A DNA stretch of 64,000 nucleotides from Holtermannia corniformis (taxonomy: Eukaryota; Basidiomycota; Tremellomycetes; Holtermanniales). Below, piece after piece: positions 27,426 to 33,542 of the stretch (positions within the stretch are counted from its first letter, which is position 1; every line of letters begins with the position of its first letter). The stretch is taken from NCBI GenBank assembly GCA_001599935.1, contig BCIJ01000010.1, forward strand, positions 246,444 through 310,443, in the 5' to 3' direction. The notes beneath the pieces were generated by a model. That model saw only the letters and a list, made by a program, of their open reading frames with translations. It did no database searches and had not been told where the DNA came from. A program made the translations under genes and the position numbers.

Positions 27426-29315
27426 CTATTGATTATTGCTGAACGCTACGGCTCGTGGCAGCCGGAACGACAGACAGTACATGTCCTTGTTCGGCGCCAC
27501 TCGTCGCACGTAGTGTAGGTGATAACCGTCCGTCTCGGGCGTCACCGCATGTCCAAGGGTACTGCTCGCCCGCTACAGCACCCATCAGCTGCAAGTGACA
27601 GTCTCATTCGCGCACGCACCTGACAGATATCCCGCGTCGCGCCCTCGAGCTCCAGCTCGCGCGTAAAGCAATGTACATGCACAAGCGGCATCGTGGCACG
27701 CTCCCCTCGATCCCCATATTTCACCTTGAAGCCATCGAGTCCCAAGAGCGCGTCGTAACATCCAGTGTAGGCATCCAAGAATTCCAACGCAGAATCAGGG
27801 AGGTTCATGACGTAGTGATCGACCAGCTGCGGTTCCAGTACGACCGGAGCGGGGATTGGGTTTGGACATAAGTCCGGAGGAGCGGCTTTGGCAGCTTCGC
27901 GGGCCCGACGAGCGAGCTTTTCGGCTTGACTGCGGGAAAGGCGAGGAGAGGGGGGAGGGAAGGGGTGTTGCCATGCTTCGACTGGCGCGGTGGAGATGAA
28001 CGCACGACCGTCGGTACACGACACCCGCAGCGTGTCTTGAACCTACACGTACTCAGTAATCACTCGAAAAGCGTCCGAGTGCGACCGACCCGGTTATCCA
28101 CCCGGTTTTTCTCCATCCATCGCGCGCTCTCTGGATTCAGATCGTTCCCGAGAACCAAGCAGCCCTTCTTGGCGGCTGGGACCGCGAACGGCCCGACGCC
28201 TGCCATGACGTCCGCCACGACTTGGCCAGGTTGGAACAAGTTGACGAGGCGTTCATGCTCGGAAGAGAGCCGAGAGTTCCAGTACACGCTCGAGAAATCA
28301 AACGTGAACCTGCACCCAGACTCGTGCTGTGCTGCATCAGCGTCAGGCCCGGGCGCGAGATGGAGGACTGACCACTTCGGCTGTGAGATCTCGCTCGCCA
28401 GCAATGACCTCCATGTCGAAGAAGCGAAACTGGGCGTGGATCGTTGAAAGCTTGTTAACGACTGTTCGGATGTTCTTGTTTTTCTACAGCATCGTTAGGC
28501 GACCAACTACTGGAGGCTAAGAGGATAGGAAGACCGACATCCATGATGAGCTGCCCGATGAGATGCTTGTAGGGTAGATAATCGTCTCGTAGATTGACGT
28601 GTGCTGATGCGGATCAGTAGCTTGCTCGTCCTGAGTAGATGCCGCACCAATATGACCCGTGGCAGTAAACGATGATGGTGCTTCATCCACTAGATCCTCG
28701 GGCAAGACTGCGTCCATGATCTCCACTGGTGATGGCGTGAGCGATGGTAACGTGAAGTCCTTGACTAACCTAGCCCCCAGTGATCATATCCAAGTTTGAT
28801 AATCCAGGGCACCAGTCCGTGCCCGTATTGCACCAACACCTCCCTCAGCTCAGGTGTGATCTCCTCTGCGAATGTTCAGGCCCGGCATCCTCTGTACGCT
28901 ACCACAGGCTCACCTTCTGATCGCGCTCGCAACAGCATCACCTTGCCTTCGAACCCATCGCCACCGACATACGATTCGACGCTCCGCACCTTTTCCAGTG
29001 CAAGCAGTTCGCTTGACGACATCAGTTCAGCGACATTGGAGGCGAATGTACGACGTACCCCCGCCGTGTCAGCTCCCTCTTGAGCTCTCCGAGCTCCTGG
29101 CCCTTGACCTTGACTCCCAAGATATGCACCTCTGTCTTAAACGCATCCCGGTTCAACTCGGTCATGCCGCGATGTACCGGCGGCAAGACGGTCTCATAAC
29201 GCGGCTTTGAAGAGGAAGCGGTCGACGACATGCTCGCAAACGATCTCCTTGCGCAACGCAGATATGGTCGTAGTGCTTGTGGGTGTCGGAAGCCAAGCAG
29301 CGCCCTGTTGTACAT
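27426..29315 (-). CDS. TRM5: TRM5, tRNA (guanine-37-N1)-methyltransferase
   Basis: TRM5 uses S-adenosylmethionine to make m1G37, preventing frameshifting. The SAM-binding block VVADVMAGVGPFAVPAAKKG followed by LGNDLNPESARWMEKN is diagnostic, with FDFSSVYWNSRLSSEHERLV just before it. The C-terminal exon carries VHCFTRELELEG, then after a 45-50 nt intron APNKDMYCLSFRLP and the stop at 27426-27428. The first exon, from 29315, starts MYNRALLGFRHPQALRPYLR and is rich in Arg/Ser with no acid, like a presequence. A second in-frame ATG at 29231 (MSSTASSSKPR) would make a form without it. Yeast Trm5 is dual-localised by such alternative starts, so the same may hold here. A cytosolic Trm5 also supplies wyosine precursors. 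Confidence 0.92.
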
Positions 29316-29456
29316 GCAATCGCTGCTTCACAAACCCGAAAGGCTCGACAGACTTTTCGGCACGTGCAGCCACGTGGCAGGGTCCTTTCACGATGTCTTA
29401 TTAGGACTTTGGGCATGTCGGGATGCAACACATTGCTCACCACTCGCAAAGCTACC
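29316..29456. promoter_or_regulatory. Bidirectional promoter region of TRM5 and TPT1-HIS2
   Basis: Only 141 bp separate the outermost start codons of two divergent genes that both act on tRNA. Both promoters must fit here or extend into coding sequence. No conserved box is evident by eye. Confidence 0.55.
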
Positions 29457-31540
29457 ATGAGCAGACCACCGCGTGTAGAGGACCCAGATGTGGTCAAGTC
29501 AAAGGTGCTAGCGTACATCTTGCGGCACGGCGCCGAGAAGGAACAGTTGTACGTCCGGGGTGATGGGTTCATCAAGGTTACAGATATGGTGTGTCGTGTT
29601 TGTGCCCCAAGCATGGTGCAGTCAAGTTGACATTGTGTTTGTTTAGCTTGCTCGTCCGAAATGCAAAGGCATAGACGTGCCCGAGCTGAAACGTTTGGTC
29701 AAGGAGAATGCAAAGCAGCGCTTTGTGCTGTTCTACGGCCATGACCCTTCGCCGCCCCGGCCCAAGGGTAAGAAGAAGGGCGAGGAGCTCCCGTTGGTGG
29801 CTATGGAGGCGCCAGACGAGTCGGCATCCTCATCGCAGGGCGAATACTTCATTCGTGCTTCTCAAGGTCATTCCCTTGCCCTGGCCGAATCTTCGGATCA
29901 TTTGAAACCAATATTGCTTGCCGATGAGGCAGGCTTGGCTGCAGTTGGAGAGCTAGTCCATGGGACAACCTTCAGTGTTTGGGACCAAATACGTCAGTCC
30001 GTCCCAGACCTCGGGTAAAAAGTGACAGAAGTGGACAGGGAGAACGGGTCTGTCGCGGATGGAACGCCAGCATATCCATCTAGCTCCGGCCAGGACCAAT
30101 GGTCCTATCAGTCAGTCTCAGTCAGTAGGAGGGATTGACAGCTTACAAAGCTGCAGCGCCTCGGGCTGCGTCCAATATCTTCATCTACCTCTCGTTGCCG
30201 TCGCTTCTCACGGCGGACCCGCCAATCCCAGTCTTCACAGCCGAAAACGGTGTAATCCTTTCCCCAGGCGACTCGACAGGTCACATCCCTCCTACTCTCT
30301 TCCACAAAGTCGTGCGAGTACTGCACAAACAAGACATTGTTCTGTGGCATGACGGCAGACCGACCGACGCGGGTTTGGAGCTGATCCGAATCGAAGATGA
30401 GAAGCGCAAGCGCATGCCGCACAGCCTGCACAGTCATTCGGGACAATTCTGCCGACACGCCAAGGACACCCTCGAAGATGTCGTCAAGGAGGCGATCAGG
30501 AAGGGGTTCCGGACGTTCGGTCTGAGCGAGCATGCGCCGCGGTATCGACTAGAGGATCTGTATCCAGAAGAAGTAAGCGGACTGCGCTGATGTACCCGTA
30601 CTCACATATCATCAGGATGACCTCAAGCCCGAGCACCTGCTCGAGACTTACTACGCCTTCCTGGCCGAGGCAACGCGCCTCAAGAGGGCTTATGTGGACG
30701 AGATCGAGCTATTCATCGGGATCGAAACGGACCATATCACTCCGTTGGACTCCACGGGTCTCACAAAGGTCTTAAAGGAGAAGGCGGCGGACATCGACTA
30801 CATGGTCGGTAGTGTGCACCACGTCAATGGTGTCCCAATAGACTTTGATCGACCAACGTGGCTGCGCGCGGTTCGGGAGGCGACTAATTCGCAACCCGGG
30901 CGCACAATGATTGCGCCTGATGACCCAGCCGACAAACCTAGGCTCGTTCCCTTGCCTGAAGGTCAAGCAGACAATGACATCCCGACCAACGCCGAACTCC
31001 TGCCATTCCTCAATGCGTACTTTGATGCCCAATACCAGCTCATATCGAGTCAACGGCCGGAAGTCATCGGCCACTTTGATCTCTGCCGGCTTTACCTACC
31101 CGATCTGGACCTCAAGCATGCTGAACTTCCTGGCGTTTGGGGCAAGATCCAGCGCAACGTCAAATTCGCTACAGGATACGGTGCGCTCTTCGAACTCAAC
31201 GCTGCCGCGTTCCGAAAGGGATGGAGTTCGGCTTATCCCGGACGGGACATTGTCGAAGTGAGTGCCTACAACAGATGTATCACTGGTACTGACCGGTTGG
31301 TAGTTGATCGCAGCCTGCAACGGCCGCTTCTGCCTATCGGATGACTCGCACGGAGTGCATGCGGTTGGGCTCAACTATCACCGTTTGCGTGAATATGTCC
31401 GAGAGGTTGGCATCAAACAACTCTGGTGCCTCGCTAAAGACCCAGGCGGACCAAGGGGCAAGGGCAGACCGAAGCGCAGAACAATCCCAGTGCTGGTCAC
31501 TGGAGACCTCGAGGATGACGCCTCCTGGCCGAAGATGTAG
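29457..31540 (+). CDS. TPT1-HIS2 fusion: tRNA 2'-phosphotransferase joined to histidinol phosphatase
   Basis: Six exons (29457-29588, 29647-29992, 30039-30110, 30157-30572, 30616-31257, 31304-31540) join in frame to give 614 residues. Residues 1 to about 255 are a complete Tpt1, which removes the splice-junction 2'-phosphate from ligated tRNA using NAD+. Its Arg-His-Arg-Arg catalytic set is visible in YILRHG, YFIRASQGHS and GLSRMERQHIHLA, and it also has ENGVILSPGDSTG and the C-terminal VLWHDGR. With no stop, residue 270 begins MPHSLHSHSGQFC, the normal N-terminus of the PHP-type histidinol phosphatase HIS2 (histidine biosynthesis). TFGLSEHAPR, FIGIETDHITP, MVGSVHHVNG and LSDDSHGVHAVG supply metal-binding residues. 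The linker is only about 20 residues. A separate HIS2 transcript starting inside exon 4 remains possible, but TPT1 would still lack its own stop. Confidence 0.85.
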
Positions 31541-31728
31541 CGAAAGGAGCCACGCCGAGCATGCAACAGGCGATCTCCTTGCTTCTGTCATCCTTTGAGA
31601 TCGATGCACCCACGTTTCGGATCGACGTTGGGACCCTGCTACCCTGTTACTAACCTGCTCTGTGCGCAACTGACATTCTCACGTACTCAGCACTGCAGAT
31701 CTGGACTTAGCCGGCCTCAATCTCCGCC

Positions 31729-33542
31729 ATGGCCGAGGAGCTCGCCACGACTCTGGGGCCAGGCGCCTTGGATGATCCCACGAGTACGACGACAACACCT
31801 CCAGCCGTCAAGACGACGACCACGCCGGTCGTGCAGACTACGACAGCAACCACGACTACGACGCCCGAGGTCGCCACTCGCACAGAGACCGTCGTAGACC
31901 CTCCGAAGACAGAGACAATTCCACCTTCCAATACTGACAGACCAACATCGACGCGTGTAACATCCACTGTGCCGCCCCCGGAGACTAGCACAGAGACGAA
32001 AGAGACGGAAACACAGACGACAACGACCGCGCCATCGACCTTTACACCTCCGCCGAGCTCAACAACAAGCACCCGGTCGACGACGACGGTGACGCCTCCT
32101 GCTGCCCTCACGAATGCGCAGTCGACGAGGACAACGGTGACAACGACACCGAGAGTGAGTACGACCACAAGTACTACCGCCACTCGAACACGCACGACTG
32201 CAACGTCAACCTCGACGACGTTGTCAGACGTGGAGCATCAGGTCGGGTCTTCGCTGTCTTTTGGTGGGTGCTAGATGATTGCTGAGAACGCTACTTGACG
32301 TTGTAGCGACGAACACGGATGCCCCGAGCGACGGCGCTGGTGCCGCCGCAGATGGTACAAGTACCGGTGCGAGTTCGGCAACGTCAACGTCGACCAAAGG
32401 CAAGAACGGCAAAGACAGCGCTGAGAGTGGGGATGACGAGGTTGGACATAGATCAGCGGGGGGCAGCATGAATATTGGGGTCATAATTGGTCAGTTTTCT
32501 ACAGGTCGCAAGTCGGGGCCCTTCGTTGACAATGCTGTAGGTATAGTGGCGGCGGTTCTGGTGGTTCTAGGCTTGGCGTTCTTCTTCTGGTCAAGATGGG
32601 TTCGTGGTTTCACAATCGTTTTGGTTGAAGTTGACACGCCTGTAGCGCAAGCAAAAGCAGCGTAAAGAAGAGCTGCAAATGCTCAATGACGAAGATGACC
32701 TCGACGATACCAAGTCCGAGTTCTCCTCTGGCCGGCCACTGAGCGATCGTCAAACGTACATGTCGGGCATGACGACTGCTGATCCTCGCGGTCGAGATAC
32801 AATGTACACCGAGTTCGACCGGCGTGGTGACCGCAAATCTTACATGACCAGCGCTGAAACCGACTACATGGACGAGTTTGACGGCAAGAGTTACCGCTAC
32901 GACATTGACAAGGATACGCTCGTGACCAAAGGACCGCGATCGACCTACTTTGCCGGCCCGCAGACGGGTCGGACAATGACGACGGCGTACACGCCATGGC
33001 ACGAACCGGATACAGCAGCACCGCCCGTGCCACAGCTACCGTCTGCGTTCATGAAGAAGAACGCCAAGGAACCGCCGATACCGACACCTGCGCCGCCCGA
33101 GCGAGCGCAAACAAGGCCGCAGACACAAATGACATCGTACAATGGGTTGCTAAGCGCATACGACAGTGATGACGCATACGGCGGGCAGGCACTGCCATCA
33201 GCTCGACCTTCGTTGCCCTCAACGCGGCCGCCCGAATCGCGCCCAACATCAACCTTCTCGACAATGACTGAGAATCTCCTCCCGTGGCTCAAGAAGAGTG
33301 GCAGAGATAGCTCGCCACCCCTACCGACGGCACAGAACGATCCTTTCACGCCTCAAGGCCGCTCACACAAGCCGCCAAGCAGACCAATCTCTTTCCGACG
33401 ACTGACAGGGGAGAAAGTCTCCCAGCCACCGACTGCACCGCCAATGGCTCGTCCCCCGCCTGTGCCATTGTATGCACAGACGCCGACAGCTGTGGCGACT
33501 CAGCAAGGTGGCTATGACGGACCGATCCCCGCGTTCCGGTAG
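31729..33542 (+). CDS. Single-pass membrane protein with Thr/Ser-rich ectodomain and long cytoplasmic tail
   Basis: The N-terminal 180 residues are mucin-like, dominated by Thr, Ser and Pro, and should be heavily O-glycosylated if extracellular. After splicing, NIGVIIGIVAAVLVVLGLAF plus FFW forms one transmembrane segment; the intron at about 32490-32540 splits it and restores the frame. A basic stop-transfer (RWRKQKQRKEE) follows, then an acidic Asp/Tyr-rich tail (LNDEDDLDDTKSEF, KSYMTSAETDYMDEF) with several Pro-rich stretches near the end (PPTAPPMARPPPVPLY) that could bind SH3 domains. No signal peptide is seen, so either an upstream exon is missing or the segment acts as a reverse signal anchor. 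It has the architecture of fungal wall or osmosensors such as Mid2/Wsc/Opy2, without recognisable homology. Convergent with COG3 by 18 bp. Confidence 0.72.

What the first reader, a model, noticed from the sequence alone, without database searches (positions are those of the whole stretch)
29457..31540. TPT1 (tRNA 2'-phosphotransferase) and HIS2 (histidinol phosphatase) are fused in one reading frame
Seen in sequence: exons 29457-29588, 29647-29992, 30039-30110 and 30157-30572 join in phase, and the fourth exon runs from the Tpt1 catalytic domain (ENGVILSPG, then VLWHDGR) straight into MPHSLHSHSGQFC of HIS2 without a stop. Introns of 58, 46, 46, 43 and 46 nt are all GT-AG. Known: Tpt1 heals the 2'-phosphate left by tRNA splicing; PHP-type HIS2 does the penultimate-stage dephosphorylation to histidinol. 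They are normally separate proteins. Inference: a 614-residue bifunctional protein, or a locus where HIS2 is also made from an internal start at 30414. Both halves keep their active-site motifs. A fusion would tie tRNA healing to amino acid supply, either by chance or as a useful co-expression. I know of no description of such a fusion.
Basis: partly seen in the sequence, partly recalled or inferred. Interest (0 to 1): 0.88.

Follow-up and report, generated by a model that had tools for sequence, protein, structure and literature searches.

The report
Fused TPT1–HIS2 gene in a yeast
In one basidiomycete yeast genome, the only gene found for a tRNA-repair enzyme (Tpt1) runs without a stop codon straight into the only gene found for a histidine-synthesis enzyme (His2), apparently making one two-headed protein; it looks real, but probably arose by chance and not for a shared purpose.

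Summary
Six exons (29457-31540, +) join through five GT-AG introns into one 614-codon frame: complete Tpt1 (PF01885) followed directly by complete PHP-type HIS2 (PF02811, TIGR01856). The junction lies inside one exon; Tpt1's tail meets HIS2's own start Met with no clear intergenic remnant. Each gene was found once in the 20.2-Mb genome. Both halves keep most family-invariant residues and place independently at a similar deep position in Tremellomycetes, so neither looks foreign. No protein listed in three database searches holds both domains, and in 13 of 13 comparable related assemblies the genes lie on different contigs, so the fusion looks derived in this lineage. With no in-frame stop before 31538, ordinary splicing can only give Tpt1 joined to His2. 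A poor start context and 13 intervening AUGs argue against scanning to the HIS2 Met, but a HIS2-only transcript is not excluded. A one-base sequence error hiding a TPT1 stop is possible; the genes would still abut. Best reading: a genuine lineage-specific fusion through loss of the intergenic region. No RNA or protein data were available, and nothing supports functional coupling. New architecture of a known kind.

The parts
29457..29588 (+). exon 1, TPT1 N-terminus (R23-H24 of the catalytic tetrad)
   Evidence: PF01885 hit
29647..29992 (+). exon 2, TPT1 (K67/R69, HGT motif)
30039..30110 (+). exon 3, TPT1 (GLSRMERQHIHLAP, R169)
30157..30572 (+). exon 4, the fusion exon: end of TPT1, its tail, and the first 53 residues of HIS2 in one open frame
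30345..30413 (+). junction segment: codons 247-269, from the last conserved Trp of Tpt1 to the HIS2 Met; length like relatives' Tpt1 tails
30414..30416 (+). former HIS2 initiator Met, now codon 270; -3 base is C
30616..31257 (+). exon 5, HIS2 PHP domain
31304..31540 (+). exon 6, HIS2 C-terminus and stop codon (31538-31540)
29232..29456 (.). presumed shared promoter region between divergent TRM5 (minus strand, ATG at 29315 or 29231) and TPT1-HIS2
   Evidence: promoter role inferred

Best explanation
This is a genuine gene fusion in a deep-branching tremellomycete yeast. HIS2, unlinked to TPT1 in the related assemblies that could be compared, was brought next to TPT1, and the TPT1 stop, its 3' end, the intergenic DNA and the HIS2 promoter and leader were lost, so that the Tpt1 tail abuts the HIS2 Met in frame. 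One transcript, started from the short region shared with divergent TRM5, is spliced and translated into a 614-residue protein. Its N-terminal Tpt1 half removes the 2'-phosphate left by tRNA ligase and its C-terminal PHP half dephosphorylates histidinol phosphate. Shown: gene structure, one copy found, conservation of both halves, absence of a stop, absence of linkage in relatives. Inferred: the order of events, transcription and translation as one unit, activity of both halves, and that the fusion is neutral or merely co-expressing.
For: One 614-codon frame through six exons. PF01885 at 147.2 bits and PF02811 at 61.4 bits, both over cut-off; TIGR01856 at 204.9 bits against 90.2. The window keeps 69 of 77 columns invariant in 12 Tpt1 relatives and 93 of 99 invariant in 12 HIS2 relatives. 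Each gene is found once in the own genome. Matches to the tRNA ligase CPD domain, histidinol dehydrogenase and IGP dehydratase lie elsewhere in the genome. Relatives' Tpt1 ends 12-35 residues from and including the last conserved Trp; here 23 codons from that Trp reach the HIS2 Met, so little or no old intergenic DNA is left. Both halves take a similar place in separate trees. The genes are on different contigs in 13 of 13 comparable related assemblies. The HIS2 AUG has C at -3 and lies behind 13 other AUGs after the TPT1 start.
Against: No transcript, peptide, read set or second isolate was available. No other listed protein has this architecture, so conservation of the fusion cannot be shown. 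The HIS2 Met is retained, which would also fit continued use as a start. Six columns invariant in the HIS2 relatives are changed, four of them at the C-terminus, and eight in the Tpt1 relatives. Of 17 long or multidomain HIS2 models that I looked at, 12 have HIS2 at the N-terminus and only 5 have other sequence before it. The trees are quick ones without bootstrap, and Naganishia moves between them.
Confidence: 0.7

Rival explanations
1. Overlapping transcription units: the long transcript gives Tpt1 as a fusion, but most His2 comes from a second transcript that starts inside TPT1 and uses the AUG at 30414.
For: The HIS2 Met is kept, and 12 of 12 aligned HIS2 relatives start at it.
Against: No TATA tetramer in 30200-30700, and the AUG has C at -3, though such motifs are weak predictors. 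Any transcript start would lie in Tpt1 coding sequence or one of its introns.
Confidence: 0.16
2. A one-base error in the assembly hides a TPT1 stop. The true arrangement is two separate genes in tandem with at most some tens of bases between stop and start.
For: TGA codons lie in both other frames of the junction segment (30382; 30350 and 30398), and a stop there would give a Tpt1 tail of ordinary length. No reads or second genome were available.
Against: The junction has no homopolymer longer than three (sequence), and GC at third codon positions is 0.61, 0.74 and 0.65 across TPT1, junction and HIS2. Even if true, there is no room for a normal intergenic region, so the locus would still be unusual.
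Confidence: 0.1
3. A splice variant separates the products: alternative splicing or retention of intron 4 gives Tpt1 without His2 activity beside the fusion.
For: Retention of intron 4 ends the frame at 30588-30590, giving Tpt1 plus 53 HIS2 residues and five more. Intron retention is common in fungi (recalled). A branch-like CTNAY is no strict guide, since introns 1 and 2 of the accepted model lack it too.
Against: Of 145 GT-AG pairs enumerated with donors in 30300-30572, those giving products under 330 residues were printed; they use 13 donors, and none fits GT[ACG][AT]G[CT], which all five accepted introns fit.
Confidence: 0.04

Closest known systems
Fungal Tpt1/KptA tRNA 2'-phosphotransferase (TPT1; solved relatives 7yw2, 7yw3, 7yw4, 7kw8)
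   Same: Full-length domain with conserved R23, H24, K67, R69 and R169; 46-52% BLASTP identity over the aligned part for the five best rows.
   Different: No stop of its own; it runs into HIS2.
PHP-type histidinol-phosphatase HIS2 / HisJ family (TIGR01856; solved relatives 3dcp, 2yxo)
   Same: Full-length domain, up to 59% identical to the HIS2 of a Cryptococcus species, with the HSHSG, SEHAP, GIETD, GSVHH, GHFDL and SDDSHG motifs.
   Different: Its start Met is internal; a 269-residue Tpt1 precedes it.
Multifunctional enzymes made by gene fusion (e.g. G6PD-6PGL fusions, PMC3148214, start of abstract in a search listing)
   Same: Two complete enzymes in one frame.
   Different: That example joins successive steps of one pathway; Tpt1 and HIS2 share no pathway known to me.
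Polycistronic read-through transcripts of mushroom-forming fungi (PMC4503453, passages read)
   Same: Two genes on one presumed transcript.
   Different: There, stop codons in all frames separate the ORFs; here the frame is continuous.

Membership tests
Tpt1/KptA | PF01885 match over curated cut-off | tested here: met
   147.2 bits against 26, profile positions 2-177 of 177
[quoted passage not shown] PMC6333775, passages) | tested here: met
   R23, H24, R69 and R169 are invariant in alignment A1; matched to the tetrad by motif and by the 7kw8 alignment, not by superposition on CthTpt1
Tpt1/KptA | 2'-phosphate removal with NAD+ | not testable with these tools
   needs an assay or complementation
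PHP histidinol-phosphatase | TIGR01856 (hisJ_fam) and PF02811 over cut-off | tested here: met
   204.9 against 90.2; 61.4 against 26.4
PHP histidinol-phosphatase | conserved His/Asp/Glu motifs of the metal site | tested here: met
   H6, H8, H15, H40, E90, H121, H206, D281, H283 (HIS2 numbering) are invariant in alignment A2, whose profile aligns to 3dcp and 2yxo; which of them bind metal is recalled
Polycistronic two-ORF transcript | stop codons between the ORFs in all frames (PMC4503453) | tested here: not met
   the frame of both halves has no stop between 30345 and 30414
Expressed gene fusion | transcript and protein span the junction | not testable with these tools
   no RNA or peptide data
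Conserved fusion family | same architecture in another species | tested here: not met
   0 of 258 fetched proteins match both halves; 43 of 163 hits and 98 of 218 hits were not listed, and no close relative is in the database

The most novel reading that the evidence does not exclude
The fusion is a selected bifunctional enzyme that ties tRNA splicing to histidine synthesis by co-expression and co-localisation under a promoter shared with another tRNA gene, TRM5, and is fixed in a whole unsampled lineage of Tremellomycetes.
Probability: 0.08. Interest if true: 0.65.

Novelty: new variant of a known kind. Interest (0 to 1): 0.42.

Why it matters
If real, an essential fungal tRNA-splicing enzyme can carry a 345-residue unrelated enzyme at its C-terminus, and HIS2 can work behind another domain and without its own promoter. 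It would be a clean example of a fusion of two enzymes of unrelated pathways, useful for gene annotation (a pipeline guided by relatives might split it) and directly testable by complementation.

Tried and rejected
Horizontal transfer of either half: rejected, because both halves take a similar deep tremellomycete place. A second, separate copy of either gene: not found. Pseudogene: rejected, because the frame is open over 614 codons and most invariant columns are kept. Assembly misjoin: judged unlikely, because a misjoin would not be expected to meet at the end of one protein and the Met of the next, in frame; not tested with reads. Ancestral linkage in Tremellomycetes: not seen in 13 of 13 comparable assemblies. 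Gcn4-type control: no TGASTCA in 28800-31600; TGACTC at 29111 lies in the TRM5 reading frame, and TGACTC at 31342 and GAGTCA at 31047 lie in HIS2 exons. Upstream ORF pieces gave no Pfam hit; the neighbour was then named TRM5 by PF02475 on a downstream exon and by recalled motifs in its sequence. Literature: searches (3 papers, 3 listed; 1, 1 listed; 22, 12 listed; 32, 8 listed) listed no paper whose title or abstract start describes a Tpt1-HIS2 fusion; I opened none of them for this beyond PMC6333775 (passages), and the library lacks most subscription journals.

Full report
Observation. All five introns are GT-AG and 43-58 nt long. For the last intron other GT-AG pairs also leave a frame open; 31258-31303 was chosen because it fits relatives without an insertion. 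The domain scan finds Tpt1 (PF01885, residues 10-221) and PHP (PF02811, residues 274-518), both over the curated cut-offs, and the hisJ_fam model TIGR01856 at 204.9 bits. Codon 270 is the Met that starts HIS2 in 12 of 12 aligned relatives. The junction lies inside exon 4, so it does not depend on a splice prediction.

Gene model. I aligned the Tpt1 half with 12 of the 14 PF01885 rows listed, and the HIS2 half with 12 of the other 106 listed rows. Of columns invariant among those relatives, the window keeps 69 of 77 in Tpt1 and 93 of 99 in HIS2. Changed in Tpt1: Y76, a Lys near 90 (gap here), E154, L155, L191, Y192, S212, V253. Changed in HIS2: H5 (Leu here), L86, R323, V327, W336, F341; four of these six are in the C-terminal tail. 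[quoted passage not shown] Tpt1 of relatives ends 12-35 residues from and including the last conserved Trp; here 23 codons from that Trp (30345) reach the HIS2 Met. The tail thus has the length of a native Tpt1 tail, with little or nothing left of an intergenic region.

Copy number and need. PF01885, PF02811 and both halves as protein queries each find only this locus in the 20.2-Mb, 55-contig genome. The genome also has matches to the tRNA ligase CPD domain, histidinol dehydrogenase and IGP dehydratase elsewhere, so ligation that leaves a 2'-phosphate and histidine synthesis both seem to be kept. I did not check that those genes are intact; one matched piece of the dehydrogenase and two of the dehydratase lie in frames with stops, which may be introns. 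That Tpt1 is essential in fungal tRNA splicing is in the abstract of PMC6333775. Since no in-frame stop occurs before 31538, a fully spliced TPT1 message can only give Tpt1 joined to His2.

Relatives. Three searches of about 5.8 billion proteins were made: the whole fusion (163 hits, 120 listed, only the 7994 candidates sharing most words scored), the Tpt1 part with candidates of about 338-1075 residues (80 hits, all listed), and exons 1-4 (218 hits, 120 listed). No listed row carries both PF01885 and PF02811. By BLASTP, 125 of the 258 fetched proteins match the HIS2 half, 133 the Tpt1 half and none both. The best HIS2 relative is 59% identical, so no close relative of this yeast is in that database.

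Linkage. For 13 strains with both proteins listed, each on one contig, the contig lengths differ, so the genes are unlinked if both records come from the same assembly: Cryptococcus sp. DSM 104548 and DSM 104549, C. wingfieldii, Kwoniella shandongensis, K. sp. CBS 6097, K. bestiolae, K. newhampshirensis, K. dendrophila, K. dejecticola, K. shivajii, K. heveanensis BCC8398, Naematelia encephala and Cryptotrichosporon argae. Left out because clusters mix strains, span several contigs, lack a contig length or are fragments: Tremella mesenterica, Cutaneotrichosporon oleaginosum, C. neoformans, C. depauperatus, K. pini, Mixia osmundae and Tremellales sp. Uapishka_1. The agaricomycete Mycena chlorophos also has the two on different contigs. 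So adjacency and fusion look derived.

Origin. Quick trees with SH-aLRT support only (32 HIS2 and 25 TPT1 relatives that I picked from those fetched) put HIS2 beside 18 Tremellales and Trichosporonales rows (94 for the joint branch, 97 for those 18), and TPT1 in the 19-row tremellomycete branch (100), outside the 16-row group (97) at an open fork with Naganishia. In the HIS2 tree Naganishia falls elsewhere, so those trees are not fully consistent. Both halves of the window nevertheless fit descent in one deep tremellomycete lineage. Species and order are unresolved; Holtermanniales or another early order would fit, which is inference.

Expression. TRM5 (PF02475, window 28084-28329, minus strand) lies head to head with TPT1, with its ATG at 29315 or 29231, leaving about 140-225 bp as a presumed shared promoter. 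The TPT1 AUG has A at -3 and the HIS2 AUG has C; 13 other AUGs lie between them in the spliced message. A purine at -3 marks well-translated Cryptococcus genes (PMC7049704, passages). Scanning to the HIS2 AUG is therefore unlikely, but a separate transcript from inside TPT1 is not excluded. Of 145 GT-AG pairs around the junction, those with products under 330 residues were printed; none of their 13 donors fits the pattern shared by the five accepted introns. Retention of intron 4 would give Tpt1 plus 53 HIS2 residues and five more.

Caveats. One-base errors could hide a TGA in either other frame. An open 23-codon stretch alone is common, 58% of those sampled. Fusion-like HIS2 and TPT1 gene models occur elsewhere, for example HIS2 with an ABC transporter in Rhizoctonia and Ceratobasidium, and Tpt1 with WD40 repeats in the same two genera. 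Whether those are real or annotation merges was not tested. Of 17 such long HIS2 models that I looked at, 12 have HIS2 at the N-terminus and 5 have other sequence before it. A PHP domain behind another domain is known from bacterial PolX (PMC7893174, start of abstract in a search listing), so the order Tpt1-HIS2 is not implausible structurally; no structure was predicted.

Verdict. A genuine lineage-specific fusion is most likely. The architecture is new as far as these searches reach, but it belongs to the known kind 'fusion of adjacent genes', and a functional link between the two enzymes is unsupported.

Noticed in passing
29231-29330 (-): TRM5 has a weak-context AUG (T at -3, 29315) followed in frame by an Arg-rich stretch without acidic residues (MYNRALLGFRHPQALRPYLRCARRSFAS) and then an AUG with A at -3 (29231). 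This fits the leaky-scanning dual localisation (mitochondria and cytosol) described for Cryptococcus mRNAs in PMC7049704.
   Followed up: partly
28084-29456: Two tRNA-processing genes, TRM5 and TPT1, are divergent with a short shared upstream region. Whether this pair is conserved in relatives was not tested.
   Followed up: no
30402-30413: The codons just before the HIS2 Met encode a basic run, KRKR, that could be nuclear-localisation-like or merely a charged linker.
   Followed up: no
31729-33542: About 190 bp downstream of HIS2 begins a Thr/Pro-rich mucin-like reading frame, with a hydrophobic stretch in the frame at 32279-32665 and a long frame without Pfam match at 32646-33542.
   Followed up: no
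29415-29456: An in-frame upstream ATG (29415) would add MSGCNTLLTTRKAT to the TPT1 N-terminus; the aligned relatives start at or near the position of 29457.
   Followed up: partly
database proteins P0037, P0038, P0039, P0065 (not in window): Several Rhizoctonia and Ceratobasidium gene models join HIS2 (N-terminal) to an ABC-transporter region; a merge by annotation or a real fusion.
   Followed up: no
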